64,000 nucleotides of DNA, taken from contig NZ_JABKDE010000001.1 of assembly GCF_013623835.1 (NCBI RefSeq), positions 186,001 to 250,000 on the forward strand. Reading direction: 5' to 3'. This stretch comes from Brevibacterium oceani (GTDB taxonomy: Bacteria; Actinomycetota; Actinomycetes; Actinomycetales; Brevibacteriaceae). Of this stretch, positions 13,653 to 36,090 are shown one piece after another (positions within the stretch are counted from its first letter, which is position 1; each line of letters begins with the position of its first letter). The translations under genes and the position numbers were made by a program. The notes beneath the pieces are model-generated. The model ran no database searches, had not been told where the DNA came from, and was given only the letters and a program-made list of their open reading frames with translations.

Positions 13653-14302
13653 CAGGGATCCTTCCGTGGGGTTTCGACCGGGAAGAACGACATCGTCCCT
13701 CCGCTAAGATCAAAGCTATGCCCGCCGAGGCGGTCGTGCCGTGATCGTTTCACCCTGTGGAACGTAGGCGGGGCGGGTCGCCTCGCTCCGCCGCAGCCGC
13801 CGGTTTCGGTGGTGCCCGCCCTCGGTGGGGCCGCCCAACGGTGGGGCCAGCGGTCACCGCGAAGGTCCATGAGTTCCGTCGAGTGGTCACGTGCCAGCAA
13901 TGCTCTCGCAACGACTATTAGCGTTTAGGATCGGCACCAGGTCACTCCGGGGGCGGATGGTTGGAATTGTCAATCGTCGTAATAGGGCTGGGACAGAGCG
14001 ATAGAAACCAGGTCGCGTTGCCGCATCGGAAGCGCTAGTCTTCAGCTCAGATGTGTGATCCGCAACGGTGTATGGAACGTGCTGCCCTAGCGGGTTTCTG
14101 CTCCGCATGTGTGTTCGCTGAGATTCTAGTCGTACATCCCAAATCAATTGTTCGTCCCGGCGGGAACGACCCGCCCCCGTTCGGCTCCCAGCAGAGAGCG
14201 CCATGATACGGCGTATAGAAGCGAGAAGCCGTTCCTGCTGACAGAGCTCTCCCATTTTGGTAAGTTGCGTTGTGCAAGTGATTTCGGCGATCAAGGGAAC
14301 TC
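13653..14302. other. Boundary region between chromosome and low-GC islet, no gene
   Basis: About 650 bases without a convincing gene. GC content drops visibly from about 13900 onward. Short open frames here (for example minus strand 13652-13900) have no family resemblance and no start signal. The stretch 14134-14158 is one copy of a near-repeat found again at 17399. The promoter of the bacteriocin-like gene should lie in 14180-14290. Confidence 0.5.
14134..14158 (+). repeat. Islet-flanking direct repeat, left copy
   Basis: ACATCCCAAATCAATTGTTC at its start matches 17399-17423 at 22 of 25 positions. It lies upstream of the bacteriocin-like gene. It may be a target or recombination scar, or a shared regulatory site. 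Confidence 0.4.
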
Positions 14303-14766
14303 ATGCTCTCAAAGCAATATGGTGAAGGCGAGCCCGGAATCAGCCAAATGCTGGGCGACGAAGTAACTGGCACCTGGTTGCTCTTCGACGCACATTGTTC
14401 AACATGCACCCGGATCTCACAAGACTTAGAAGCAGCCACGGAAGGTAAGCTTGCAGTACTTCCGCTTGACTCGGACTTTGCGCTACGTGCCCGGCGTCAA
14501 GTGTTCGGCGAAGACATGCCGCACAAGCCTACTTTCCTGAAAGTTGTGCAAGGTGAGCCGCGAGCGTGGACCGGTGCGCGAATAGCACCATTGGTTGCGC
14601 GCGAAGTTGGTTTCGAAAGCTCACTTCAAATATTAAAGATCCTTGGCATTGAGCGATCTGGGCGCAATCGTGACCGTCAAGCTGGGCTGTTGTCTAGGCG
14701 TGGGTTCGCGCAAGTGGCTGGAGGCATTGCCGCTAGTTTCGGGATTCTCGCCGCAGGTAGTTTTGC
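14303..14766 (+). pseudogene. Bacteriocin-type precursor, 5' part (interrupted by ISL3 element)
   Basis: This and 16202-16927 are one gene split by the IS. The start ATG 14303 has AAGGGAAC five bases upstream. The first about 110 residues look like a small thioredoxin-fold domain: WLLFDAHCSTCTRISQDL has the CxxC motif after a beta strand, and HKPTFLKVV a cis-Pro-like turn. Residues 133-160 contain LSRRGFAQVAGG followed by a hydrophobic segment, i.e. a twin-arginine export or membrane signal inside the protein. As it stands the frame runs 5 codons into the IS and stops at 14782 (159 residues). Fused redox domain plus exported cysteine-rich peptide would make sense if the N-domain guides disulfide formation; that is inference. 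Confidence 0.65.
14759..14766 (+). repeat. Target-site duplication, left copy
   Basis: AGTTTTGC directly abuts the left IS end and is repeated exactly at 16202-16209. Eight bases is the duplication length of ISL3 elements. Confidence 0.92.
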
Positions 14767-16201
14767 GGCTCATCGTAAATGAGAGTGTAGAACCGGTCTG
14801 AAGCCACCGGACTCGAGCAGGCACCTGGCGATGTAGTGGGTGATGTTACGGAAGCCCAACGCTGACCCCCGTAGATGTTCGAGCCTGCCATTGATCGCTT
14901 CAGTCGGACCATTGGACGTTCCCGGTCGGGTGAAGAACGCGAGGATATCAGTAGCTCGACGCTTCAAGGTCCGTCCCAACCGTTTGAGCTCAATGAGCTC
15001 TGTGGGCAGGTTCGTCGTCAGGGCGTCAATGACCGTTCTCAAGAGCTTCTTGCCCTCGTTGCGGTCGGCGGTTCGGTAGGCGTTCACAATGTCTTGGTAA
15101 ACAGCCCAGGTGACTTCGACTTCGGTGAAGTTCGCATCAGCGAATAGGCCCGCGATCTTCTCCTGTTGCTTTGTTGTAAGCAGATCAGCTCCGGTGTGCA
15201 GAGTCCTCCTCGCCCGATACAGCGGGTCTTTCGCCCGGCCGCGGTGACCAGTGGTCGCCTGCTGAACACGACGACGAACATCATCGAGAGCATCACCGGC
15301 GAGCTTGACGACGTGGAAGGGGTCCATGACTTCCACAGCGTCGGGCAGCTCCTCAACCGAGGCTGTCTTGAACCCGGAGAACCCGTCCATCGCGACGACG
15401 TCGATGCCATCACGCCAGTCTTTCGGACGGGCTTTCAACCACTCCTTGAACACCTGCTTCGACCGTCCGGACACCATGTCGAGCAACCGCGCCGGGCCTG
15501 CTGCCTGACTGATCGGGGTGAGGTCGATGATGACGGTGACGTACTTGTCACCGCGCCTGGTGTGCCGCCATACGTGCTCGTCGACACCAATGACGCTGAC
15601 CCCGTCGAAACGGGTCGGGTCGTTGATCAACAGCCGGCGACCTTCAGCGAGGATTGCGGAGTTCGCGGTGTGCCAGGACACGGCGAGTTTGCGTGCGATC
15701 ACGGACACGGTGTCGTGGTCAATGACGAGGGCGCGCAGTGCCCAGTCCAATCCGGTGCGCGAGATCTTCGCTCGTGGGGGTGTCGCAGCAGTGGTGTCTT
15801 GACGCCATACACAGCCGCACTCGACGCATTTGTAGCGGCGGAGGCGAATGTGAAGCGTGGTCGGTCGGTGGCCGAAAGGCTCGTGGGCCAGACGACGGAC
15901 GACGGTATCGCGGACGATCCCGTGCCCACCACACCGACGGCACCAGTCATCTGCAGTGTTCGGCGAACATTCCAGAATGGCTTTGTGTCCGGTGACGTGC
16001 TGGCCAATACAGGTCAGGTCGAGGGTGTCGAGTCGGCAGAATGTCGTGAGGTCAGGGGTCGAGAAAGTAGGCTTGGCCACGTCGAGGTCTTTCGGATGGA
16101 CTGTGTGAGAACTTCCATCATCGGAAGACCTCGACGTCTATCCAGGCAGCGCCACGCCGTGTCCTGGAATCACAGATCTACACTCTCAATTGCGAAGAGC
16201 C
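14767..16201. mobile_element. Complete ISL3-family insertion sequence, 1435 bp
   Basis: Ends are inverted repeats: GGCTCATCGTAAATGAGAGT at the left (14767 onward) and, reading inward from 16201, GGCTCTTCGCAATTGAGAGT; 25 terminal positions match with 4 differences. The GGCTCTTCG tip is characteristic of ISL3. Single transposase gene on the minus strand. Flanked by the 8-bp duplication AGTTTTGC, so the insertion is intact and probably recent. Confidence 0.95.
14770..16080 (-). CDS. ISL3-family transposase
   Basis: 436-residue DDE transposase, complete. An N-terminal zinc finger is formed by cysteines in DDWCRRCGGHG and YKCVECGCVW. VIGVDEHVW and VVAMDGFSGF carry the two catalytic Asp residues, and TSNGPTEAINGRLEHL the Glu. 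The stop lies inside the left inverted repeat. No frameshift, so the element can be active. Confidence 0.95.
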   Translation of the reverse strand: MAKPTFSTPDLTTFCRLDTLDLTCIGQHVTGHKAILECSPNTADDWCRRCGGHGIVRDTVVRRLAHEPFGHRPTTLHIRLRRYKCVECGCVWRQDTTAATPPRAKISRTGLDWALRALVIDHDTVSVIARKLAVSWHTANSAILAEGRRLLINDPTRFDGVSVIGVDEHVWRHTRRGDKYVTVIIDLTPISQAAGPARLLDMVSGRSKQVFKEWLKARPKDWRDGIDVVAMDGFSGFKTASVEELPDAVEVMDPFHVVKLAGDALDDVRRRVQQATTGHRGRAKDPLYRARRTLHTGADLLTTKQQEKIAGLFADANFTEVEVTWAVYQDIVNAYRTADRNEGKKLLRTVIDALTTNLPTELIELKRLGRTLKRRATDILAFFTRPGTSNGPTEAINGRLEHLRGSALGFRNITHYIARCLLESGGFRPVLHSHLR

Positions 16202-16927
16202 AGTTTTGCTGGTGCACGCCCTGCCTCGGCGTCTGCCATTAAGCCCAGCAAGATCGCATCGCGGTCGCGTGTCGGAGAATTGGTGAAGACGGCAATCGAC
16301 AGCGCTGACTTTGTCAATATCGCCGATGATACGACCCTTGCGAAGATGAGAGCCGGAAGTTTGTCGGCGCGATCTCAGCTGGCCGAATTTCAGTACCAGC
16401 TGGGCTCAGAAAGTATCGAGATACAGTCATACTCTGACAGCGACCCGCTAGTGCAGGCGTCGTCAGGGGAAGACCAAGACGGGGAGCCAATCGAGACTCT
16501 CGCAATTACCCTTGAAAGTGTCGGCGTGGTGTATTCCGTCAACTTCAGTAATGGCGGAACTGATGTGCGAGCCGAACGGTACGCGGTCGACTTCAAGGAG
16601 GGGGAAGCAGAGCTCGTTGATGCCAGCTCGAATGGAGTTCGCATGGAGCCGCTCCCGGAAGGGATAGCGGCTCAGAAATCTGACCCGTGCGGCGGGTGTA
16701 CCAGTGCAACTAAACTCACTGTGGGTCCTACGTGCAAAACGAATAAGGTGCTCGATTGTGCCTTTGCGGCGTCAAGTTGCGCGGGTTGCGTAGCCGCCTG
16801 CGGTTCAGGCGTGGGGACCGTGGGTTGTGCCACATACCTCTTTAGTGGCTGCGGAGCAGCGATCAAGTATTGCTGCGAAAAAGTCGGCGGCCAAGTGTGC
16901 CCTCCCTGTGGTGGCGGGAAACCATGA
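16202..16927 (+). pseudogene. Bacteriocin-type precursor, 3' part with halocin C8-like domain
   Basis: Continues the gene at 14303 in the same frame once the IS and one AGTTTTGC copy are removed (joined length 1182 bases, 393 residues). After the export signal and ASASA there is an acidic spacer of about 140 residues, then a terminal 75-residue region with 13 cysteines: a CGGC pair, CAFAASSCAGCVAAC, FSGCGAA, YCC and CPPC. Cysteine spacing and small-residue helices resemble the halocin C8-like bacteriocin domain. A frame from TTG 16190 in the IS end still covers this part but lacks a full export signal and an RBS, so the product is probably lost. Confidence 0.65.
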
Positions 16928-17145
16928 GTCGAGAAAGCGGAACAGGAGTCGGCATGGGAGAGCTAATTGGAGCTTTTGCACTAGGTATGACCTTCGCAGT
17001 AGGAGGGATGCTATTTTTCACGGAGGCTCACAGTGGGCCTGCGTCTTTCGCTCTTGGGTTGGCGTTCCCGCTGGTCGCGCTTGCAGGAATGGTTATCCTG
17101 CTGATTCAGCGCTTTCGTCGCCTCCGGGATTCGAATAGCGCGTGA
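16924..17145 (+). CDS. Small two-helix membrane protein, candidate bacteriocin immunity protein
   Basis: 73 residues; ATG overlaps the precursor stop (ATGA). Two hydrophobic helices (about residues 12-32, GAFALGMTFAVGGMLFF, and 40-62, FALGLAFPLVALAGMVILLI) are followed by the basic tail QRFRRLRDSNSA. Small membrane proteins coupled to a bacteriocin gene are often immunity factors; this one shows no family signature I recognise, so the role comes from position. It is intact although the precursor is broken. Confidence 0.55.
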   Translation: MSRESGTGVGMGELIGAFALGMTFAVGGMLFFTEAHSGPASFALGLAFPLVALAGMVILLIQRFRRLRDSNSA

Positions 17146-17469
17146 CTCCTGCTATTTGAACCCGTCACTGCAGGGCTCCAAGTCGATCTATTGGCGTAGC
17201 CAGGTTGGCCTCGCGCAATCCGAACGGCGGCTCCCCGCTGAGACTGGAAGTACTGGTGCAGAGTACTTGGCTCGCAATTTGCCAGGTCGCTCGTTTTCGA
17301 ATGAGTAGCCTTACGTAGTCTCAGCGAGGTGCCGCCGCTGCGTTCGGTGACGACCCATCTGGTTCGACACGGAGTACCAACTTTATGAAGTCCTTTGCAC
17401 ATCCCCAATCGATTGTTCGCCCCTCCCATCGGCACGTCCGTGCAGCGGGGCGGGCCGCCTCGGCGAGGG
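17146..17469. other. Right flank of the islet, no gene
   Basis: 324 bases of mixed composition, with no open frame that looks like protein. The right copy of the islet repeat is at 17399-17423. GC returns to chromosomal level near 17430. Confidence 0.5.
17399..17423 (+). repeat. Islet-flanking direct repeat, right copy
   Basis: Same orientation as the copy at 14134-14158, 22 of 25 bases identical, 3.26 kb apart. The two copies bracket exactly the low-GC bacteriocin segment. Confidence 0.4.
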
Positions 17470-18792
17470 TCAGAACTTCTCGCTGTCGACGTAGCGGATC
17501 TCGTCGGGGAGGTTCGCGAGGTAGTCGACGATGAAGTAGGCGATGGCCTCCATGGTCGGGATGTCGCGCTGCCGGGCGCGGGCCATCGTCCGCCGATGTT
17601 CGGCGAATTCGTAGAAGATCTGTCCCGGCTCGAGCTTGCGGGTGAGGTTCTCCGGGATCGCCTGGATGAGGGGTTTGTAGACCTCGTCGAGCCAGCGTCG
17701 GGCGGCCTCGGATTCGTCGAGTTCGTCCACCTCGGCGATCTCCGGGGCGGAGCGGAACGAGTCGAGGTCGTTGAGCATCGCCCGTGCCTGGTTCTCGTTC
17801 GCCCCGATGCCGGTCAGGCGCAGCAGACGCCGGGAATGGTGATTGGGTTCGACGACCTTCGGTTCGACGAGCAGGCTGATGCCGTCGAGGTCGGTCGTCA
17901 CTGTCACCTCGCCGAGGTCGAAGCCGAGATCGTTGAGGCGGCGGATGCGTTCGTCGATGCGCCAGCGTTCGTTGACGCTGAACTCCTCGACACGGGTCAG
18001 CTCCGTCCACAGCGCCTGATACGACTCGCACAGGCGCTGCCCGGCGGCCATCGGATCGGTCTCGGGATCGACGAGCCCCGCGGCCTGCAGGTCGAGGAAG
18101 TCACCGGCGATGTTCATCCGCGCGATCCGCAGGTCCATGTTCCGCTGCCCGTCGGAGAGCTGGTCGTGCAGCTCCCCGGTCTCCGCATCGACGACGTACG
18201 CGGCGTAGGCGTCGGCGTCACGGCGGAAGAGGGTGTTCGACAGTGAGACGTCGCCCCAGTAGAACCCGACGAGGTGGAGCCGGGCGAGCAGCACAGCCAG
18301 AGCGTCGACGAGGCGGCCGCCGGTGTCCGAGGCGAGATCCCGGGAGAACAGCGCCCGGTAGGGAAGGGAGAATTCGAGGTAGGCGGTGATGAGTGCGCCG
18401 TTGAGCCTCTGCCCGTCTGCGGTGGTCCGGCCGCTGACGACGGCACGCGGTTCGACCAGCGGCACGTCGAGGTTGCCCAGTGCCCCGAGGATGTCGAACT
18501 CCCGCATCGCCTGCTTGTCCTCGGTCTCCTTGATCGCGAGGACTTCGTCGCCGATCTCGACATAGCGCACCACATGGCGGGAGATGCCGCGGGGGAGTCC
18601 GCCGAGGAGCTTCTGCGGCCACTGTGCCAGCGGCAGATGCCACGGCAGTTCGGCGAGAGCGGTGCGATCGGCGTGGCGGACCGTGTGGATCTCGGGCGCC
18701 GTGCTGGGCTCCGATGCTGAACCCGGCTCGGGCGTCGTGCCGGGCGCGCCCGCTGTGCCCGCGGACGAAGGCTGGGACGGGATGCCCGGCAC
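17470..18792 (-). CDS. DUF4032 domain protein, kinase-like
   Basis: 440 residues. A Ser/Thr/Pro-rich N-tail (1-35) precedes a region with a weak protein-kinase-like fold: EVLAIKETEDKQAMREFDIL looks like the lysine/glutamate pair and FYWGDVSLSNTLFRRD like a catalytic HxD-type loop with D and N. The rest matches the DUF4032 type common in actinobacteria. Cytosolic. It lies 3 bases after the degenerate ABC ATPase gene and must share its transcript. Biochemical role unknown. Confidence 0.75.
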   Translation of the reverse strand: MPGIPSQPSSAGTAGAPGTTPEPGSASEPSTAPEIHTVRHADRTALAELPWHLPLAQWPQKLLGGLPRGISRHVVRYVEIGDEVLAIKETEDKQAMREFDILGALGNLDVPLVEPRAVVSGRTTADGQRLNGALITAYLEFSLPYRALFSRDLASDTGGRLVDALAVLLARLHLVGFYWGDVSLSNTLFRRDADAYAAYVVDAETGELHDQLSDGQRNMDLRIARMNIAGDFLDLQAAGLVDPETDPMAAGQRLCESYQALWTELTRVEEFSVNERWRIDERIRRLNDLGFDLGEVTVTTDLDGISLLVEPKVVEPNHHSRRLLRLTGIGANENQARAMLNDLDSFRSAPEIAEVDELDESEAARRWLDEVYKPLIQAIPENLTRKLEPGQIFYEFAEHRRTMARARQRDIPTMEAIAYFIVDYLANLPDEIRYVDSEKF

Positions 18793-28416: not shown

Positions 28417-29424
28417 TCACAGAAGCGCGTTCAACACATCCTCATTCGGAACCTCCGCAAGATGCGCATACCGTTGCGTGGTCTGAATGCTGGTGTGACC
28501 AAGCAGCCGCCGAACTTCCTCCACCGGCACACCACCCTGAATCAGCCACGACGCGAACGAATGGCGTAGATCATGGATGCGGAACGGTTCAACCTTCGCC
28601 GCAACCGCCGCATCATCCAGAGCGCGCCGCAAAGACCTGCTGCGGGGCCGTTCGCCACGCGGCGACAGAATCACCGGGTCCGTGCCCCCTATCGACTCAT
28701 GAAGCCATTTAGGGACCGGCACGGTACGACGCTTCTTCCCCTTCGGATAATCGAGCAACTGCCCGTTCTTCTCATCCCACACTTCGGCAACGAGAATCAC
28801 ACCACGCTTACGATCAAACCGATGCGGCTGTAACCCTGCCGCTTCACCCCACCTGAGGCCCGTATAGGCGAGCAGGTATGTCAGTTTCGCCCACTGCGGG
28901 GACAAATGTGCGCACACTCTGTCCACTTCCGCTTTGGTGAGGAACCGTTCGTGTGTGACCTCACCAGTTTTCAACCTGACTCCCTGTGCGGGGTTCACGT
29001 GAATCAGTTCGTGGTCAACGGCTTCGCGTAATGACGTGTTCAGTAGGCCGACTATGCGGTTGACCGTGGTGGGTTTGTGGTTCGCCTTTAGTTCGGCAAC
29101 CCATCGCTTAACGTCGGCGCGGGTGATATCCGATAGTGCAGTCTTTCCCCACCTTGGCATCACATGCAGGTCGATGCGTTGTTCATCGGTGAGTTTCGTG
29201 GATGCGGCTATGTCCCGGTGTGCTTGCCATTCTTTCGACCATTCGCCCCACGTGACGGGTGTGTCCTTTGTTCGCATTTCACGAACTTCGGCTTCCTTCT
29301 TCGCTGCTGCCCGTAGTGCTGCCGGTCGGTGAGTGAACGTTCCGGGCGCGGTCTTCTGCTTCCCGTATGCGTCACGGTATCCGCCCCGGTATTCACCGTT
29401 CGCTAGTTGTCTAACCCACGCCAT
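28417..29424 (-). CDS. int: Phage tyrosine integrase
   Basis: 335 residues. An N-terminal arm-binding region (GGYRDAYGKQKTAPGTF) and SAM-like core-binding domain (residues 60-150) precede the catalytic domain: TGLRWGEAAGL (first Arg), HDLRHSFASWLIQGG (HxxR), LGHTSIQTTQRYAHL (His and nucleophile Tyr). It directs integration and excision at tRNA-Thr. Its ATG overlaps the stop of the repressor gene (TAATG), so it is co-transcribed with the repressor. Confidence 0.95.
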   Translation of the reverse strand: MAWVRQLANGEYRGGYRDAYGKQKTAPGTFTHRPAALRAAAKKEAEVREMRTKDTPVTWGEWSKEWQAHRDIAASTKLTDEQRIDLHVMPRWGKTALSDITRADVKRWVAELKANHKPTTVNRIVGLLNTSLREAVDHELIHVNPAQGVRLKTGEVTHERFLTKAEVDRVCAHLSPQWAKLTYLLAYTGLRWGEAAGLQPHRFDRKRGVILVAEVWDEKNGQLLDYPKGKKRRTVPVPKWLHESIGGTDPVILSPRGERPRSRSLRRALDDAAVAAKVEPFRIHDLRHSFASWLIQGGVPVEEVRRLLGHTSIQTTQRYAHLAEVPNEDVLNALL

Positions 29425-29708
29425 TACTCACTCACCGCGTCCATGATGCTGAAGTGGTCTTCGTCGGAACCCTGTGCCATTCGGATGCCGCGCACTAGTA
29501 CTTCTTGCGGGTCGATGCCGAGGTGATGGCAGGCGACGAAGATTTGGTCCAGGTCGAGGGGTGCCTGTCCGCGCAGCTGTCGGGATAGGTGGGATTGGCT
29601 TATGCCGAGGATTGACGCGAGTTTGGTTTGGGTCACGCCTTTTATCACCATTTGCGCTTTGATGAGGCGCGCGATGGCGTTTGCTTCTGGGGATACTTGG
29701 GCGTTCAT
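29424..29708 (-). CDS. XRE-type helix-turn-helix protein, probable prophage repressor
   Basis: 94 residues from ATG 29708 (MNAQVSPEA). The HTH is GVTQTKLASILGISQSHLSRQLRG at about residues 24-47; the C-terminal part HHLGIDPQEVLVRG resembles other small XRE regulators. Small, no peptidase domain, so not a RecA-cleaved repressor. It is divergent from the Cro-like gene across 29709-29887, a typical lysogeny switch. Confidence 0.8.
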   Translation of the reverse strand: MNAQVSPEANAIARLIKAQMVIKGVTQTKLASILGISQSHLSRQLRGQAPLDLDQIFVACHHLGIDPQEVLVRGIRMAQGSDEDHFSIMDAVSE

Positions 29709-29887
29709 GGGTCCAGCATTGCACGCCACGCCCAACTATGCAAGAAAGTTACAAATTATTTTCCTGAGCATGGTCCGTGCCTGACCTGCATGAACACCCA
29801 CATACCGCATGGTAACCAGCCAAATCACACTGATGCAATTCTATGCTCACCAGCATAAGCCGTGTTCCGTGGGGTAGCTTAGTAGCC
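29709..29887. promoter_or_regulatory. Lysogeny-switch promoter/operator region
   Basis: Contains the inverted repeats TATGCT-CACC-AGCATA (29842-29857) and TACC-GCAT-GGTA (29803-29814), plus single GCAT-type half sites near 29741 and 29767. The first sits where the -35 box of the rightward promoter should be. Likely operators for repressor and Cro-like protein. Confidence 0.6.
29875..29880 (+). promoter_or_regulatory. -10 element of the early rightward promoter
   Basis: TAGCTT followed by 7 bases and then ATG 29888: a leaderless start identical in layout to host genes cysS and the LacI regulator. Confidence 0.55.
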
Positions 29888-30277
29888 ATGAACACCACGA
29901 CAGGCACAGTAGCCAAGAACATCCGAAAGGCTCTCAACGCCGAGGGCTACACCGCAAAGAACATCGCAGAACGACTCAACGTTTCCTACTCGCAAGCAAC
30001 GCGACTCCTCAACGGGAAGTCCCGGTTCCGTCCCGAGTACATCGGCACAATCTCCCGAATGCTCGGCATGGACCCGGAACGACTGATCGGGGTCAACCCG
30101 AACAAGGTGACTATCAAGTTCACGGTGAAGGAAGCAGCAGAGCGCACCAAGTACCACCCGGACACGATCAGGAAGGCCGTGTATCGGGGCGAAATGAAGT
30201 CGGTTCAGAGAGTCAAGGGCGGCAAGTACCTCATTGACGAGATGGATTTGACCGCATGGTTGGCGGGTGCGAGATGA
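29888..30277 (+). CDS. Cro-like/excisionase-like fusion protein
   Basis: 129 residues with two DNA-binding domains. Residues 1-65 are an XRE-type HTH (GYTAKNIAERLNVSYSQATRLLNGKS). Residues 75-129 are a winged-helix excisionase/MerR-type domain (FTVKEAAERTKYHPDTIRKAVYRGEM, then KGGKYLIDEMDLTAWL). The first rightward gene opposite the repressor is the usual Cro place, and the second domain is the usual Xis, so both functions appear joined. Start supported by the -10 at 29875. Overlaps the next gene by ATGA. Confidence 0.75.
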   Translation: MNTTTGTVAKNIRKALNAEGYTAKNIAERLNVSYSQATRLLNGKSRFRPEYIGTISRMLGMDPERLIGVNPNKVTIKFTVKEAAERTKYHPDTIRKAVYRGEMKSVQRVKGGKYLIDEMDLTAWLAGAR

Positions 30278-30543
30278 GTCCCGCAACAGTTACAGACCTC
30301 AGCCGAGTTTCGCACACGGGAGGGACGGCCTCAGGGTTCCAGAACAGGATCATCCGGTTCTGCTTCGATAACGGTATCGAGATTTCGAACTCTAAGGCGC
30401 GGAAGTTGAGTATCCGGTTGGCTCGTCGCATGGATGCGATGAGCGAAGAGTTCGACTTCTATGAGTCCCTCCGCATTCTCGGCATGACCACGGACACGAC
30501 CGCCCGCGACGCGGTTCGCAACCTGGAACGCACCACTCACTAA
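30274..30543 (+). CDS. Hypothetical phage protein
   Basis: 89 residues, ATGA overlap with the Cro/Xis gene. Mostly helical and basic in the middle (NSKARKLSIRLARRMDAM). No family recognised. Ends before a terminator at 30561, so it closes the immediate-early unit. Confidence 0.6.
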   Translation: MSPATVTDLSRVSHTGGTASGFQNRIIRFCFDNGIEISNSKARKLSIRLARRMDAMSEEFDFYESLRILGMTTDTTARDAVRNLERTTH

Positions 30544-30560
30544 GACTGCACCACCCAAAC

Positions 30561-30600
30561 AAGCCCCGGTTCACGTTGGCAGCGTGGGCCGGGGCTTTCT
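30561..30600 (+). terminator. Early-unit terminator
   Basis: AAGCCCCGG (30561-30569) pairs with CCGGGGCTT (30589-30597); an inner CACG/CGTG stem extends it; a short T-rich end follows. Confidence 0.7.
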
Positions 30601-30628
30601 AATACCTACTTACGGGAGACGAATTGTA

Positions 30629-30898
30629 ATGACGATTAAGGATGCGGTTAAGCGGATCATGGCGAATTCGCCGAATACGAATCGGGCGAAGGTGCATAAC
30701 CGGTTGAAGCAACTGGTGGGTGCCGGTGTGTCTGTTGAGGATGCGTTTAATGGCCTGGATGTGGTTGTTCGGACTGAGGGTTTGAACGGTCGTAAGGGTG
30801 GTGGTGATCCTACCGCGCAGGAAGCAATGGCACGCATGGAGACGGATATTCGTGAAGAGCACGGGTATATGACTAATTGGGTTACAAGGTGGGGCTGA
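30629..30898 (+). CDS. Hypothetical phage protein
   Basis: 89 residues, ATG 30629 with GGGAGAC upstream. DAVKRIMANSPNTNRAKVHNRLKQLVGAGVSVEDAF looks like two helices. G/T-rich coding strand. Function unknown. Confidence 0.6.
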   Translation: MTIKDAVKRIMANSPNTNRAKVHNRLKQLVGAGVSVEDAFNGLDVVVRTEGLNGRKGGGDPTAQEAMARMETDIREEHGYMTNWVTRWG

Positions 30899-30933
30899 AC
30901 GGCTTCACGGATTTCACGAGGGAGTGAAGAGCA

Positions 30934-31074
30934 ATGACTGCAAATGGCTTTGATTATGACTGGGACGACCGCATGAATAATGGGTCTGGCGGTTGGCATA
31001 TCAGTGAGCATGAAGAACGGCCTGTCCGTGATGCTGATGATTTTCTGGCCGCACTGCATAGGAAACTGTCATGA
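30934..31074 (+). CDS. Hypothetical small phage protein
   Basis: 46 residues, ATG 30934 preceded by GAAGAG. Acidic, begins MTANGFDYDWDDRMNNG. Its stop overlaps the next ATG (ATGA). Confidence 0.55.
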   Translation: MTANGFDYDWDDRMNNGSGGWHISEHEERPVRDADDFLAALHRKLS

Positions 31075-31286
31075 CCGCGAATCCCGAGTATGTGGTGGCG
31101 CGGACTACGGTTGCGACGCCTTTGGAGGTTCGTGAGGCGGCGTTGTTTACTACGTCGGCGGTTTGGTCTGATTTGGATGTGCGTGTTGCGTCTGTGATTC
31201 CGGCTATGTACCCGGAACGGTTTTCGCGTGACACGTACTGGTTTGATGCTGACGTTACTGCAAGGCTCACGAGGGGGCGGAAATGA
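31071..31286 (+). CDS. Hypothetical phage protein
   Basis: 71 residues, ATGA-coupled on both sides. YWFDADVTARLTRGRK at the C-terminus. No family recognised. Confidence 0.6.
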   Translation: MTANPEYVVARTTVATPLEVREAALFTTSAVWSDLDVRVASVIPAMYPERFSRDTYWFDADVTARLTRGRK

Positions 31287-31456
31287 ACATGCCTCCTGCT
31301 TTTCTTCGCGAGTGCGATATGCAACGTATGCGCGACCACGGGACAGCAACGGTCGCTGAATTGGAACGGGCTGCTGCATGGATTCCTGTGCGCGGTTACG
31401 AAGTGTCTGGTGATGCAATTGCGATTCTTCGACGCAAAGGATTGTTCGATGAATAG
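31283..31456 (+). CDS. Hypothetical small phage protein
   Basis: 57 residues, start ATG 31283 in ATGA overlap. Helical, with ATVAELERAAAWIP. Overlaps the next gene by 8 bases. Confidence 0.5.
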   Translation: MNMPPAFLRECDMQRMRDHGTATVAELERAAAWIPVRGYEVSGDAIAILRRKGLFDE

Positions 31457-31595
31457 GGCACAACGACAGAACGTGTTTTTGACGGTTACTCTCGTGGCGG
31501 TTGTAATCGCCGGAACGCTCGCTTTGGTCGGTTTTGGCGATTATGAGCAGGCACGCGACGACCACCGGCAATCACAACACAAGGACCAACCATGA
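31449..31595 (+). CDS. Small single-pass membrane protein
   Basis: 48 residues: basic start MNRAQRQNVF, a hydrophobic helix LTVTLVAVVIAGTLALVGF, and a polar C-tail rich in Asp/His/Gln. Might be a superinfection or host-takeover factor; nothing identifies it further. Confidence 0.55.
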   Translation: MNRAQRQNVFLTVTLVAVVIAGTLALVGFGDYEQARDDHRQSQHKDQP

Positions 31596-31765
31596 TCTTG
31601 TTGAAAGTTAAACCACTTACGCGTGACCCTGACGATGGTGTTGCTGCCACTTATGAATGCGGGGCGTGCTTGACAACCAGCGTCCAGCGGAAAGACGCGT
31701 ACGCAACACCAGAATACGTTCGCTGCCCACTATGCCAACACTTCGAAGGAGACAACGGATGCTGA
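31592..31765 (+). CDS. Small zinc-ribbon protein
   Basis: 57 residues; YECGACLTT and YVRCPLCQHF provide two CxxC pairs spaced as in a zinc ribbon. ATGA overlap with the upstream gene. Confidence 0.6.
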   Translation: MILLKVKPLTRDPDDGVAATYECGACLTTSVQRKDAYATPEYVRCPLCQHFEGDNGC

Positions 31766-31965
31766 CTATAGAACACGACTGGACAGACAACATTCTCAAA
31801 GTCGTCACAGACAGTACAGTCACACCACTTGATTTCGAAGACGCGCTCGATCTGCTCACTGATCTACAGCATTACACGGAACGCATGGAAGAACGCGAAA
31901 TCGAGTTAGACAAACACCGTTACAGCGACGAATACGGGGACGGCGAAACAGCATGGAGGCAGTGA
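31759..31965 (+). CDS. Hypothetical phage protein
   Basis: 68 residues from ATG 31759, overlapping the upstream stop by 7 bases with GAAGGAG ahead. Acidic, one amphipathic helix DFEDALDLLTDLQHYTERMEE. Confidence 0.55.
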   Translation: MLTIEHDWTDNILKVVTDSTVTPLDFEDALDLLTDLQHYTERMEEREIELDKHRYSDEYGDGETAWRQ

Positions 31966-32357
31966 TGAACAAGCAGGAACTGATCAAGAAGATCGCGGAC
32001 GAGGGTTGGGCACACCGAATGGCCGACGGGATCGTCAACGCCATAGACGCTGAGGGTTGGCTCCGTAACCCTGGTGAGCCCATCGACCCGGCAGACATCC
32101 GCAAGGGCGACCGGGTGCGGTTTGCTTCCCCGAGCGGCCGGATCGCCGAGTACACAGCAGAGGCTACGCCAGCTCGACCCGAGGATGACCCCTGCGACTG
32201 GTTCCTCTTGGACCGACCGGACCCTGAGCCGACGAACGCGGAGAAGCTGAAAGCCGTTCTGGATGCAATCGGAGACAGCACAGGCGGATACCGCGAACAC
32301 CTGGCGAGCAAGCTCGACGAGGCTGGCGTGAAGGCACCGGGAGGCGACGATGACTAA
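31965..32357 (+). CDS. Phage protein with DPEPTNAE-type C-terminal module (copy 1)
   Basis: 130 residues; TGATG start with GGAGG seven bases before. The middle PADIRKGDRVRFASPSGRIAEYTAE looks like a small beta barrel. The end DPEPTNAEKLKAVLDAI...GVKAPGGDD is shared with proteins at 37973, 40233 and 40643. Function unknown. Confidence 0.6.
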   Translation: MNKQELIKKIADEGWAHRMADGIVNAIDAEGWLRNPGEPIDPADIRKGDRVRFASPSGRIAEYTAEATPARPEDDPCDWFLLDRPDPEPTNAEKLKAVLDAIGDSTGGYREHLASKLDEAGVKAPGGDDD

Positions 32358-32520
32358 TGCAACGTTTAATGCTGTTACTTATCCCGATACTGAGGGTGTG
32401 TATTTTGCGGTTGCGCGGGGGGATGTGTCGTTTGCAATGTTCTTCAATCTGGAAGAAATCTCCCGGCTAAAGGAAGTGATTGAAAACGCAACTAGACCCG
32501 AAGCCGATCCTCAGCAATGA
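32350..32520 (+). CDS. Hypothetical small phage protein
   Basis: 56 residues, overlapping the previous gene by 8 bases. Beta-rich start NATFNAVTYPDTEGVYFAVA. No family recognised. Confidence 0.55.
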   Translation: MTNATFNAVTYPDTEGVYFAVARGDVSFAMFFNLEEISRLKEVIENATRPEADPQQ

Positions 32521-32659
32521 CGGGCACGTTCGCCGCGCAGGACTCGGACTGCTCCGGCTGTACCCATCAGATTACGTTTTCGCGCCACGCATCGACTACT
32601 CGCAGCAGTACGAGGACTACATGCAGGCCGAGCGCGATTACCAGGAGGCGCACTCATGA
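32480..32659 (+). CDS. Hypothetical phage protein, TTG start
   Basis: 59 residues. TTG 32480 follows AAAGGAAG and an in-frame stop; the aromatic-rich C-half LYPSDYVFAPRIDYSQQYED looks like real protein, unlike the other frames here. Overlaps the upstream gene by 41 bases and the next by ATGA. Start is moderate confidence. Confidence 0.45.
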   Translation: MKTQLDPKPILSNDGHVRRAGLGLLRLYPSDYVFAPRIDYSQQYEDYMQAERDYQEAHS

Positions 32660-32757
32660 GGCTTGAACTCGCAATCATGTACGCATGCCGCGCCATTGTG
32701 TGGGGTGTTGGCGGTTTCATTATCTGCACTGCCGCTTATGCTTCGGTCTGGTTTTAG
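32656..32757 (+). CDS. Tiny membrane peptide
   Basis: 33 residues, ATGA-coupled; one hydrophobic helix IVWGVGGFIICTAAYASVW. Too short to classify. Confidence 0.45.
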   Translation: MRLELAIMYACRAIVWGVGGFIICTAAYASVWF

Positions 32758-32836
32758 TGGCTAATCCTCGAATAACTGGGATCATCTAACCCGTTAACCC
32801 CACTTACGAGCCACATCACACACATAAGGAGAACCC

Positions 32837-32932
32837 ATGGATGACGGTTGTATCGAATGGGACGAAAACGACAACCCACACCACGACGACCAAAACTGTA
32901 CATGCTGGTGCCATGAAGTGAACCTGATATGA
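32837..32932 (+). CDS. Tiny Cys/His-rich peptide
   Basis: 31 residues after a good AAGGAG. NPHHDDQNCTCWCHE could bind a metal. Stop overlaps the next ATG. Confidence 0.45.
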   Translation: MDDGCIEWDENDNPHHDDQNCTCWCHEVNLI

Positions 32933-33030
32933 ACTACTGGCCGTCTGATGAAGAAGTAGATGCCGCACAGATCGCGGGCGAGCGCAGGCGGGGAGGCGAT
33001 CAAGATCGCAGCGACACCCAAACCAATTAG
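32929..33030 (+). CDS. Hypothetical tiny phage protein
   Basis: 33 residues starting MNYWPSDEEVDAAQIAGERR, ATGA-coupled. It conflicts with the frame at 32960; the sensible-looking N-terminus here and the sensible C-terminus there may mean one gene broken by a frameshift near 32993. Confidence 0.35.
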   Translation: MNYWPSDEEVDAAQIAGERRRGGDQDRSDTQTN

Positions 33031-33157
33031 ACACAAACTCAAAGTCGTGCGCATGCTCGAACGGCTGGGACGCAAACACGATTACACAATGCTGCCGCCC
33101 ATCTGGATTAACGGGGTGCCACATGTTGCATTCAAGAAGGAGAAGGAAGAGGAATGA
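32960..33157 (+). CDS. Hypothetical phage protein, start uncertain
   Basis: Up to 65 residues. The convincing part is RHKLKVVRMLERLGRKHDYT onward to a Glu/Lys tail; first possible starts are ATG 32960, GTG 33047 or ATG 33053, none with a clear RBS. Overlaps the next gene by ATGA. See the frameshift remark for 32929. Confidence 0.4.
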   Translation: MPHRSRASAGGEAIKIAATPKPIRHKLKVVRMLERLGRKHDYTMLPPIWINGVPHVAFKKEKEEE

Positions 33158-33549
33158 AGGAGAAAGGCGAACGCCTGTTCTACCACCACGAGTACCCAGA
33201 CCCGCTATACGAAGACCGGACAGTCATGGTTGGTGGTCACGCAGACCCGGAAATCGCACTGATAGCTCACAAGGGAAATGATGCCGCAATCTATATCCCC
33301 AGGAGTGAGGTCGAATCAGTGATAGTTGCCCTGGCTGTGGGCACTAGTTACGTGACCCGCTCCCGACCCGACCGGGTTTCCAAGAACTATCGCCCCAATG
33401 CAATGTCGGGGTTCGTTGAGTCGTTCCGTGAGGCTATGGTGCCGACGTTCCGGGATCGGATGCGTGCGGCAATTGATGCGGCCGAGGATGACTGGGCAGC
33501 TAAGTGCGCAGTGACCAACATTGTAAATGAGTACGAGAGGTTGCGATGA
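33154..33549 (+). CDS. Hypothetical phage protein
   Basis: 131 residues, ATGA at both ends. Mixed alpha/beta; RLFYHHEYPDPLYEDRTVMVGG then helical C-half with MRAAIDAAEDDWAAK. Position before the exonuclease suggests a recombination or replication accessory, not shown. Confidence 0.6.
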   Translation: MKEKGERLFYHHEYPDPLYEDRTVMVGGHADPEIALIAHKGNDAAIYIPRSEVESVIVALAVGTSYVTRSRPDRVSKNYRPNAMSGFVESFREAMVPTFRDRMRAAIDAAEDDWAAKCAVTNIVNEYERLR

Positions 33550-34232
33550 AGCGAACGTTTTTCAACGAACTAGAACAAGGCACCGACGAATGGTTGCAAG
33601 CCCGGTGCGGCATCGTTACCGCGTCCACGATGCGTAACCTTGTCACCGCATCAGGTAAACCAGCCGACAACGATACGTCGCGCGGGTTTGTTCGGCAGTT
33701 GGCTACGGAACGCATTATTGGTGTTCCCGAGTACACGCACCCGACCCGGCCAATGCAGCGGGGGACAATGTTGGAGCCGTTTGCTCGGGACTTGTACGCG
33801 GAACATTACGCACCCGTTGAAGAAGTCGGATTCATCAGGCTCGATACGGAACGGTACGCACTCGGGTTTTCGCCTGACGGGTTGGTCGAGCGCGATGGGT
33901 TACTTGAAATCAAGTCACCTGGCCCGAAGGAACACCTACGCACAGTCCTGGCTGATATTCAGCCGACCGTTTACGACTGGCAGCTACAGGTTGGTTTGTT
34001 CGTTACCGGGCGCAGTTGGATTGATTTCGTCAGCTTCTGCCCCGGTATGGACCTCTATGTGAAGCGTGTCTACCCGAACCCGGAAGCATTCGAAACCATC
34101 GACACAGCGGTAACCAACGCAGAGGCACAGATTCGCGGCATGCTCCACACCTACTACACCACAGGCCGCGCAAACAACCGACCACACACCGAGTTCTTCG
34201 ACCCGTTCGAAGAAGACGAAATGGAGTTCTAG
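33546..34232 (+). CDS. YqaJ-type (lambda-exonuclease-like) recombination exonuclease
   Basis: 228 residues, close to lambda Exo. Starts with QGTDEWLQARCGIVTASTMRNL, the YqaJ signature. MLEPFARDLYAEHY and the catalytic GFSPDGLVE...LLEIKSP (Asp, Glu, Lys of the PD-(D/E)xK fold) and QLQVGLFVTG follow. It degrades the 5' strand of DNA ends for single-strand annealing recombination. A partner annealase is not recognisable, though 34415 is in the right place. Confidence 0.92.
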   Translation: MKRTFFNELEQGTDEWLQARCGIVTASTMRNLVTASGKPADNDTSRGFVRQLATERIIGVPEYTHPTRPMQRGTMLEPFARDLYAEHYAPVEEVGFIRLDTERYALGFSPDGLVERDGLLEIKSPGPKEHLRTVLADIQPTVYDWQLQVGLFVTGRSWIDFVSFCPGMDLYVKRVYPNPEAFETIDTAVTNAEAQIRGMLHTYYTTGRANNRPHTEFFDPFEEDEMEF

Positions 34233-34234
34233 CA

Positions 34235-34414
34235 ATGAGTAGAGCAAGTAAGTACGAAGACCTGGCAGACGAAATTAACCTCCACGTTCCCGGAAGGGGG
34301 AGCCACTACTACCCGGACGATGATACGCAACGCGATAGGCGCTCGGTTCTCAAGTGGCTCGACAAGCATCCCGAAGATATTCCAGGGCCGACTGTCGCAG
34401 ATAAGGATAACTAA
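34235..34414 (+). CDS. Hypothetical small phage protein
   Basis: 59 residues, charged; DDTQRDRRSVLKWLDKHPED forms a likely helix. Lies between exonuclease and the possible annealing protein. Confidence 0.5.
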   Translation: MSRASKYEDLADEINLHVPGRGSHYYPDDDTQRDRRSVLKWLDKHPEDIPGPTVADKDN

Positions 34415-34939
34415 ATGGATATGACGAGTACGATTCAGCCGAGGTCTGACCAGCTCAATGCGGATGACCTGCTCACCGGCCCTATGACTGTCACGATCAC
34501 CGAGGTTACGCAGGGGAATGCTGAGCAGCCGGTGAACGTGAACACTGTTGAAACACCTGGCCGACCATACAAGCCGAGTAAGAGTATGCGGCGTGTGATG
34601 GTGACGGCGTGGGGCAAGGACGCGAACGCTTATGCGGGGAAACGCCTCACCCTGTTCCGCAACCCTAAAATCCGGTTCGGAAAGGACGAAGTGGGAGGAA
34701 TTGAAATCTCCCACATGAGCGACATTGACGCTGATTTGAAAGTGTCACTCACAGCCACGCGCGGGAAGAAGAAACTGCACACTGTCAAACCACTTGCCCC
34801 TTACACCCCGTCGCAGGATTTCCTGGCACTCATGGCTTCTGCGTCTACGGGTGGCGAGAAGAACGCGATCTGGCAGCAGGCAACGGAAGACGGAGCAGAC
34901 CAAACATATTTGGTCCGGCTGAAGGAGGCTGGATCATGA
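34415..34939 (+). CDS. Phage protein next to YqaJ exonuclease, possible DNA-binding partner
   Basis: 174 residues. VETPGRPYKPSKSMRRVMVTAWGKDANAYAGKRLTLFRNP and GGIEISHMSDI look like a beta-barrel core; such proteins are common beside YqaJ in actinophages. It ends in a helix with TYLVRLKEAGS. Whether it anneals or binds single strands is inference from position. Confidence 0.55.
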   Translation: MDMTSTIQPRSDQLNADDLLTGPMTVTITEVTQGNAEQPVNVNTVETPGRPYKPSKSMRRVMVTAWGKDANAYAGKRLTLFRNPKIRFGKDEVGGIEISHMSDIDADLKVSLTATRGKKKLHTVKPLAPYTPSQDFLALMASASTGGEKNAIWQQATEDGADQTYLVRLKEAGS

Positions 34940-35220
34940 GTCTTTACAGGACAGTTGAATGGACTATCGACAGTGCGTTCGAGCCGACCGACTGCGAAAC
35001 ATGCGGGCCGTCCTATGAAGAATTGAACGTGTCCTGGGACGGCTACAAATTCCACGCAAACTATCGAGTTGGATGTTATGGCGGGGCAAGTGCCTATGAC
35101 ATGAACATCACTTTGTTGGTGGAATGGTTGGGGCAACTACCGGACGGTTTCATTGCGGCCTCGGATGAACGCGAACTGCTCGACGAAGTTCACCGGGAAT
35201 GGAAGTCGAACAACCCGTAA
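34936..35220 (+). CDS. Hypothetical phage protein
   Basis: 94 residues, ATGA overlap. Aromatic and cysteine-containing N-half (DCETCGPSYEELNVSWDGY), helical C-half. Last gene before the strong terminator at 35245. Confidence 0.55.
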   Translation: MSLYRTVEWTIDSAFEPTDCETCGPSYEELNVSWDGYKFHANYRVGCYGGASAYDMNITLLVEWLGQLPDGFIAASDERELLDEVHREWKSNNP

Positions 35221-35244
35221 CCGTCTAACAGTTTCTAACAAGCA

Positions 35245-35275
35245 GGCACCCCAATGTTTTGTGGGTGCCTTTTTT
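35245..35275 (+). terminator. Rho-independent terminator
   Basis: GGCACCC (35245-35251) pairs with GGGTGCC (35263-35269), followed by six T. The clearest intrinsic terminator of the prophage early region. Confidence 0.88.
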
Positions 35276-35295
35276 GGTGCCAGAAAGGTATCAAC

Positions 35296-35442
35296 GTGGC
35301 GAAGAAGAAAGACACCACGGACACGAAATCGCGTCGCTGCCCGCATTGTTTGGGTACGGAGCTTGTGTGCCGACTGCTTGCACGCGACACGAAACAACCA
35401 TGCTGTCGGCAATGCGAACACCCGAAAGGAGGGACAGCGTGA
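35296..35442 (+). CDS. Small zinc-ribbon protein
   Basis: 48 residues from GTG 35296 with AGAAAGG upstream. Two CxxC pairs: RRCPHCLGTELVC and CCRQCEHPKGG. Basic, probably nucleic-acid binding. GTGA overlap with the next gene. Confidence 0.55.
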   Translation: MAKKKDTTDTKSRRCPHCLGTELVCRLLARDTKQPCCRQCEHPKGGTA

Positions 35443-35642
35443 ATGAGTTGCGGGAATTCATTAACGCGGCACAAGCAGGCCGCACGAAACCCGAAGTGAA
35501 ACCGCGCAAACAATGGGACGAACACGACATGTCCATTGCACTCGACCTTCGCCTCACGGGTGTTGAAGCAGCACGCCGTATCGGTTGCACGCCACAGACG
35601 GTGAACAACGAACGGCGGGAATGGCAATACGAATGGAGGTAG
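35439..35642 (+). CDS. Small helix-turn-helix phage protein
   Basis: 67 residues, GTG start. HDMSIALDLRLTGVEAARRIGCTPQTVNNERREW has the length and pattern of a sigma-like or MarR-like HTH. Likely a phage transcription factor; targets unknown. Confidence 0.55.
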   Translation: MNELREFINAAQAGRTKPEVKPRKQWDEHDMSIALDLRLTGVEAARRIGCTPQTVNNERREWQYEWR

Positions 35643-35800
35643 TCGATGCTGACAAATACGTGTCGTGTTTCCGTTGCGGAATCAATATGGGTTTATGGGC
35701 CGAATCGGAACGCGTATTTTGTGCAGACTGCAACCACCCCGACCTTATTGGCGTATTCAGCCGACTTGATTACTCGTACATTTTCGAAGGAGAAGAATGA
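35621..35800 (+). CDS. Small zinc-binding phage protein
   Basis: 59 residues if started at ATG 35621 (ATG 35633 is also possible). SCFRCGINMG and VFCADCNHPD form a zinc knuckle. ATGA overlap with the redoxin gene. Confidence 0.5.
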   Translation: MAIRMEVVDADKYVSCFRCGINMGLWAESERVFCADCNHPDLIGVFSRLDYSYIFEGEE

Positions 35801-36090
35801 CAATGTGTGAATCAAAACCAGTACTAACTTTGTATACAAAGAGCAACTGCTTCCAGTGTGAGGCCACGAAAAAGTACCTGAACAACCACAACACTCGATA
35901 CCAGGAAATCAGCCTCGAAGAAGACGAACTCGCTTTGGCTGCTGCTAAAGACCTCGGTTATCGTGCCGCGCCGGTCGTGTTTGTTCGCTACCCATCCGGT
36001 GCCGAATCACACTGGGCAGGATTCAACCCAGGACGTTTGGCTGACTTCGTTGCATCCGCAAAGAAATGGGCGCGCGATGACCTCAGTTGA
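35797..36090 (+). CDS. NrdH/glutaredoxin-like redoxin
   Basis: 97 residues. VLTLYTKSNCFQCEATKKYL has the CxxC active site, RAAPVVFV the cis-proline strand, and HWAGFNPGRL the C-terminal substrate loop. Probably supplies electrons to a ribonucleotide reductase, host or phage; no nrd gene is in this window. Overlaps the HNH gene by 14 bases. Confidence 0.85.
   Translation: MTMCESKPVLTLYTKSNCFQCEATKKYLNNHNTRYQEISLEEDELALAAAKDLGYRAAPVVFVRYPSGAESHWAGFNPGRLADFVASAKKWARDDLS

What the first reader, a model, noticed from the sequence alone, without database searches (positions are those of the whole stretch)
14303..16927. Bacteriocin-type precursor with built-in CxxC domain and halocin C8-like tail, cut by an ISL3 element
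Deleting 14767-16201 and one AGTTTTGC restores a single frame from 14303 to 16927 (393 codons). The joined protein has an unusual order: thioredoxin-like CxxC domain, internal twin-arginine segment, acidic spacer, then a 13-cysteine domain like halocin C8. Halocin C8-like domains are known from archaea and some bacteria, but a redox domain in the same chain is not something I know. It could be a self-guided disulfide-rich peptide system.
Basis: partly seen in the sequence, partly recalled or inferred. Interest (0 to 1): 0.8.

Follow-up and report, generated by a model that had tools for sequence, protein, structure and literature searches.

The report
IS-broken redox-headed bacteriocin-like precursor
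A foreign two-gene cassette carries a probable antibacterial-peptide precursor, here broken by a jumping gene, whose thioredoxin-like front end is shared by a largely unrecognised family of bacterial proteins that bolt the same front onto many unrelated, mostly toxin-like, tails.

Summary
Observation confirmed. An ISL3 element (14767-16201, 25-nt inverted repeats, 8-bp duplication AGTTTTGC) splits one gene. An uninterrupted homologue in the same genus has the same order: CxxC domain, Tat-like signal, spacer, cysteine tail. The gene plus a small two-helix membrane gene form a ~3.6-kb low-GC island, absent at this site in 11 of 11 relatives examined.

Interpretation partly supported. The tail does not match the halocin C8 model (TIGR04449), which an archaeal control does match. 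The redox-domain fusion is not unique. The same head (thioredoxin fold predicted; CxxC in 37/37) occurs across Actinomycetota and in Thermomicrobium. It precedes at least six tail groups with no detectable similarity to each other, including fulvocin C-related (NF033852) and an M23 peptidase. Of 595 protein pairs, 590 align in the head and 84 in the tail. Tails with only 2-4 cysteines keep the CxxC, so the head is probably a general export module rather than a dedicated disulfide maker.

Best reading: an inactivated member of a polymorphic antibacterial precursor family, exported by a Tat-like signal, with the adjacent membrane protein as likely immunity. No activity is shown. A head shared by unrelated tails appears undescribed in the papers searched.

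The parts
13820..17440 (.). Acquired island (approximate ends): low-GC insert between an SDR oxidoreductase gene and the gene at 17470-18792
   Evidence: In 11 of 11 relatives examined the flanking genes adjoin without it; GC 55-60% apart from part of the IS, against 65-71% in most flanking bins; best-resolved empty site L097
14303..14764 (+). Precursor gene, 5' piece: CxxC head plus start of Tat-like signal (154 codons before the insertion; ORF as it stands 14303-14782)
   Evidence: 66% identical to the head of intact homologue L004; AAGGG five bases before the ATG
14369..14638 (+). Thioredoxin-fold domain (residues 23-112), CxxC = CSTC at 14396-14407
   Evidence: AlphaFold2 pLDDT about 90 for most of this stretch; listed best PDB matches are thioredoxin or PDI domains, prob up to 0.98, none with E<0.001; CxxC in 37/37 heads
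14693..14764 (+). Tat-like signal SRRGFAQVAGGIAASFGILAAGSF, continued after the insertion by AGARPASA
   Evidence: Sequence; family pattern S/N/T-R-[RSGA]-x-F; relative L060 passes the TIGR01409 Tat cut-off
14759..14766 (.). Target-site duplication AGTTTTGC, left copy
   Evidence: D10
14767..16201 (-). ISL3-family insertion sequence, single copy in this genome; inverted repeats 14767-14791 / 16177-16201
14770..16080 (-). ISL3 transposase, 436 aa, open
   Evidence: NF033550 E=8e-108; PF01610 E=9e-57
16202..16209 (.). Target-site duplication AGTTTTGC, right copy
   Evidence: D10
16202..16678 (+). Precursor gene, 3' piece: end of signal (ARPASA site) and spacer/pro-domain
   Evidence: Homologous to L004, L008, L009, L024 and Rubrobacter-type proteins (hhalign Prob 97)
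16679..16927 (+). Cysteine-rich tail, 13 Cys, stop at 16925-16927
   Evidence: no TIGR04449 match
16924..17145 (+). 73-aa protein with two predicted membrane helices (14-32, 43-61), ATGA-overlapped with the precursor; candidate immunity protein
   Evidence: homologue downstream of L004 (31% over 61 aa, E=3e-8); small 2-3-helix ORF downstream in most window-type loci

Best explanation
The locus is a horizontally acquired two-gene antibacterial cassette whose precursor gene has been inactivated by an ISL3 insertion. The intact precursor has a conserved cytoplasmic head (DCC/thioredoxin-like domain with CxxC) directly before a Tat-like signal, then an extracytoplasmic spacer and a cysteine-rich tail. 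Inferred steps: the head keeps the chain export-competent and gates or docks it at the membrane; the Tat-like signal exports the rest; signal peptidase cuts at the Ala-x-Ala site, leaving the head behind; the exported tail oxidises to about seven disulfides; a protease removes the spacer and releases the antibacterial peptide; the small downstream membrane protein protects the producer. Shown: architecture, selection on the reading frame, predicted head fold, island, IS break, polymorphism of tails behind one head. Inferred: export, processing, antibacterial action, immunity and the exact job of the head.
For: Intact homologue with the same order. Head CxxC 37/37 and thioredoxin fold. Heads 590/595 pairs alignable, tails 84/595 in seven clusters by BLAST; of 115 pairs with heads at least 60% identical only 25 share a tail. 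Three paralogues in one ~20-kb cluster have heads 77-88% identical and tails without convincing alignment. One tail class is NCBI's fulvocin C-related bacteriocin family, whose model covers only the part after the signal. Small 2-3-helix membrane ORF downstream of most window-type precursors, and five small membrane ORFs in a row in Thermomicrobium. Patchy: 3 of 57 genomes in the genus, two of the three broken by different insertion sequences; another copy, in a Rubrobacter-like genome, is followed by an IS982-type transposase right after the Tat motif. Island and empty sites.
Against: No antibacterial activity is known for any member with this head. The second arginine of the Tat motif is not conserved (R, S, G, A or K; about 10 of 24 have RR), so Tat use is uncertain. 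No model matches the window tail. AlphaFold of the spacer and tail failed (pLDDT 36). Foldseek matches for the head are weak (best E 0.0087). Downstream small ORFs differ in sequence between sub-groups and none was found beside the two Nocardiopsis precursors.
Confidence: 0.62

Rival explanations
1. The head is a dedicated in-cis disulfide oxidase or isomerase that folds the cysteine-rich tail in the cytoplasm before Tat export.
For: CxxC invariant; most tails are rich in cysteine; separate thioredoxin-like accessory genes assist disulfide bacteriocins elsewhere (pediocin PedC, PMC4919988, abstract); a Streptococcus pneumoniae bacteriocin transport accessory protein is among the top structure matches (1zma).
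Against: The same CxxC head sits before tails with 2-4 cysteines (L085, L086, L066, L073, L074) including an M23 peptidase. An Ala-x-Ala site follows the signal, so head and tail would be separated at export.
Confidence: 0.25
2. The small membrane gene is not immunity but part of export or maturation, and the spacer itself is the immunity domain, as reported for the halocin C8 precursor (HalI; own knowledge, title of Sun 2005 cited in PMC12893001).
For: Same overall order as halocin C8 precursors after the signal (signal, pro-region, Cys tail); weak pro-region profile similarity.
Against: Profile probability only 10-17%; type-specific small membrane genes recur, and an array of five in Thermomicrobium looks like stacked immunity.
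Confidence: 0.25
3. A secreted disulfide-rich protein with a non-antagonistic role (surface, signalling, metal binding).
For: No activity data; one tail type is an M23 peptidase that could serve the producer's own wall.
Against: Tail polymorphism, patchy island distribution, recurrent inactivation and neighbouring small membrane genes fit antagonism better.
Confidence: 0.18
4. The split is functional: the head and tail are now two proteins.
For: Both frames remain open; a TTG start at 16190 precedes the tail.
Against: The tail piece has lost the head and the core of its signal; homologues are single chains.
Confidence: 0.04

Closest known systems
Bacteriocin fulvocin C-related protein, NCBIfam NF033852
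   Same: Several members carry the same CxxC head and Tat-like signal in frame before the model region; named a bacteriocin
   Different: The model covers only the part after the signal; the window tail and spacer do not match it. In two Streptomyces plasmid records (L028, L128) the annotated start lies inside the frame and leaves the CxxC out
Halocin C8 precursor family, TIGR04449
   Same: Tat signal, pro-region, C-terminal Cys-rich tail; single-gene precursor
   Different: No redox head; tail model does not match the window or relatives
DCC1-like thiol-disulfide oxidoreductase PF04134 / thioredoxin fold
   Same: DxxCxxC motif, thioredoxin-like model, weak matches (best E 0.0026)
   Different: Below the Pfam cut-off where the score was shown; here fused before an export signal
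Polymorphic toxins with a constant trafficking head (e.g. LXG proteins of T7SSb, PMC9600955)
   Same: Constant N-terminal module, variable C-terminal part, adjacent candidate immunity genes
   Different: Small Tat-like exported precursors with a thioredoxin-like head; no dedicated secretion machine seen
Thioredoxin-like accessory proteins of disulfide bacteriocins (PedC type)
   Same: CxxC oxidoreductase tied to a Cys-containing bacteriocin
   Different: There a separate gene in trans; here a domain of the precursor itself

Membership tests
Halocin C8-like domain (TIGR04449) | C-terminal Cys domain scores above 24 bits with the model | tested here: not met
   Window tail and relatives: no match at E up to 10; control L056 9.5e-12; no match in the window's whole genome at E 0.1
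Halocin C8-like domain (TIGR04449) | Pro-region homologous to the halocin C8 immunity/pro-region | tested here: inconclusive
   hhalign 10-17% probability, E 0.001-0.003 for a single comparison
Fulvocin C-related (NF033852) | Match above 35 bits to the post-signal region | tested here: not met
   0 families for the window tail; L010 scores 113.9
CxxC-headed Tat-like precursor family (named here) | Thioredoxin-like head with CxxC before an R-x-x-F signal | tested here: met
   Head profile E=4.8e-48 for the window, which is also one of its 16 rows; CxxC and signal present; fold
CxxC-headed Tat-like precursor family (named here) | Head and tail in one chain in intact copies | tested here: met
   L004 and many others
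Bacteriocin | Antibacterial activity of the mature peptide and producer immunity | not testable with these tools
   Sequence evidence only
Tat substrate | Twin arginine S/T-R-R-x-F-L-K with modest hydrophobic stretch and AxA site | tested here: inconclusive
   Window has SRRGF and RPASA; second Arg variable in the family; one relative passes TIGR01409
ISL3 insertion sequence | DDE ISL3 transposase, inverted repeats, 8-bp target duplication | tested here: met
DCC1-like oxidoreductase (PF04134) | Score above the gathering cut-off of 27.8 bits | tested here: not met
   Window head: no Pfam match at E up to 1; a relative scores 17.7 bits, E=0.0087; no own-genome match at E 0.01

The most novel reading that the evidence does not exclude
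A previously undescribed polymorphic antibacterial system of Actinomycetota and neighbours: one cytoplasmic redox (CxxC) trafficking head plus Tat-like signal, onto which many unrelated toxic tails are shuffled, each with its own small membrane immunity protein, the head acting as a redox-sensitive gate for export.
Probability: 0.45. Interest if true: 0.8.

Novelty: new variant of a known kind. Interest (0 to 1): 0.6.

Why it matters
If right, a single searchable head sequence exposes many antibacterial precursors that are scattered among hypothetical proteins, and in some records are annotated with the head cut off. It also raises a testable question: why an invariant thioredoxin-like CxxC domain should sit on the cytoplasmic side of a Tat-like signal, even before tails that hardly contain cysteine.

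Tried and rejected
Pfam and NCBIfam for the two window pieces: no family. First genome-contig query (A3) lacked a conserved stretch; the second (A4) gave five loci. The tail alone found nothing in plasmids. AlphaFold of spacer plus tail: uninformative. DCC proteins in the own genome for comparison: none. Head in phages: none. Literature: only two papers name fulvocin C; none found that describes the CxxC head; one paper on archaeal antimicrobial peptides that I tried by DOI was not held. I considered that tails merely diverge faster than heads; rejected because paralogues with heads 86-88% identical have unalignable tails while a pair with heads at 68% (L063/L065) keeps tails 49% identical.

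Full report
1. The observation. The window holds one gene cut in two. The left piece (14303-14766) encodes a CxxC domain and the start of a Tat-like signal; the right piece (16202-16927) encodes the rest of the signal, a spacer and a 13-cysteine tail. Between them lies a 1435-bp ISL3 element with 25-nt inverted repeats and an exact 8-bp target duplication, present once in the genome; similar elements are common on actinobacterial plasmids.

2. It is one gene. A second species of the genus (G006, locus L004) carries an uninterrupted 396-codon homologue, collinear with both pieces. Substitution patterns show purifying constraint on head, spacer, tail and the next gene. A third species (G022) has nearly the same gene as G006, broken by another insertion sequence with a TTAG duplication. 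Only 3 of 57 genomes of the genus have the gene. In a Rubrobacter-like genome a head is followed by an IS982-type transposase directly after the Tat motif.

3. The island. In eleven relatives the SDR gene and the 17470-18792 gene adjoin; the window has about 3.6 kb more, of low GC. Apart from the IS it holds the precursor and a 73-codon gene whose ATG overlaps the precursor's stop. That gene encodes two predicted membrane helices and has a homologue in L004.

4. The family. Profile searches find the head in 16 of 395 genomes of the class with the first profile, 17 of 390 with the head profile and 25 of 396 of a phylum sample, many of them in one family (f69) that must include Rubrobacter (L061 encodes the same protein as Rubrobacter radiotolerans L029). 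It also occurs on a Thermomicrobium plasmid. Within 35 distinct proteins, 590 of 595 pairs align in the head and 84 in the tail, in seven BLAST clusters. Profile comparison joins several cysteine tails to the window type but not the fulvocin, L058/L020/L021 or L066/L071 types. One tail is an M23 peptidase. In one genome three paralogues within about 20 kb have heads 77-88% identical and tails without convincing alignment. This is what exchange of tails behind a constant head would give.

5. The head. AlphaFold2 with six sequences gives pLDDT about 90 for most of residues 23-112; the listed PDB matches are almost all thioredoxin or disulfide-isomerase domains, though none reaches E 0.001. Sequence models give weak hits to DCC1-like oxidoreductases and thioredoxin. 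CxxC is present in 37 of 37 heads, including those before tails with 2-4 cysteines. This argues for a general export role rather than, or in addition to, service to tail disulfides. The second arginine of the Tat motif varies.

6. The tail. It does not match the halocin C8 or fulvocin models. Relatives of the same type mostly have 14 or more cysteines; this copy has 13. Small membrane genes follow most window-type precursors, and five in a row follow the Thermomicrobium one.

7. Mechanism. My best account is given in Best explanation; what is shown and what is inferred are separated there.

8. Novelty. One branch is known by name; the shared head over unrelated tails was not found in the papers searched, but that library is open-access only. 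I file it as a new variant of a known kind.

Noticed in passing
L008, L009, L024 (downstream genes; L032:6163-7350, L009:3022-4125): In two Nocardiopsis precursors and one relative, the precursor is beside a Fe-ADH-type enzyme; the two tested are closest to the daptide RiPP dehydrogenase (NF041822, E 5e-47 and 3e-40, below cut-off), and all three precursors end in Thr, the residue that daptide enzymes decarboxylate (PMC10036551). Possible C-terminal modification of this branch.
   Followed up: partly
L127:5021-8028 (Thermomicrobium roseum plasmid): Five consecutive small membrane proteins (90-115 aa) directly after a CxxC-headed precursor; looks like an immunity array.
   Followed up: partly
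L028:8253-8957 and L128:3268-3933 (Streptomyces plasmids): The annotated start of the fulvocin C-related gene lies inside the open frame, so the CxxC head is missing from the annotated protein.
   Followed up: yes
L029:5522-6919 and L127:1-1666: An S8 serine peptidase gene lies upstream of the precursor in Rubrobacter and Thermomicrobium; candidate maturation protease.
   Followed up: no
L088:13821-18915: ABC-2 transporter genes beside a cluster of head paralogues in G529.
   Followed up: no
L005, L006, L037: Independent insertion-sequence breaks of the same gene family (G022; Rubrobacter-like MAG), suggesting repeated inactivation.
   Followed up: partly
window 28417-36000: Integrase-like gene followed by phage-like small ORFs, including a YqaJ-like and a glutaredoxin-like ORF; probable prophage (ORF list; by eye).
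   Followed up: no
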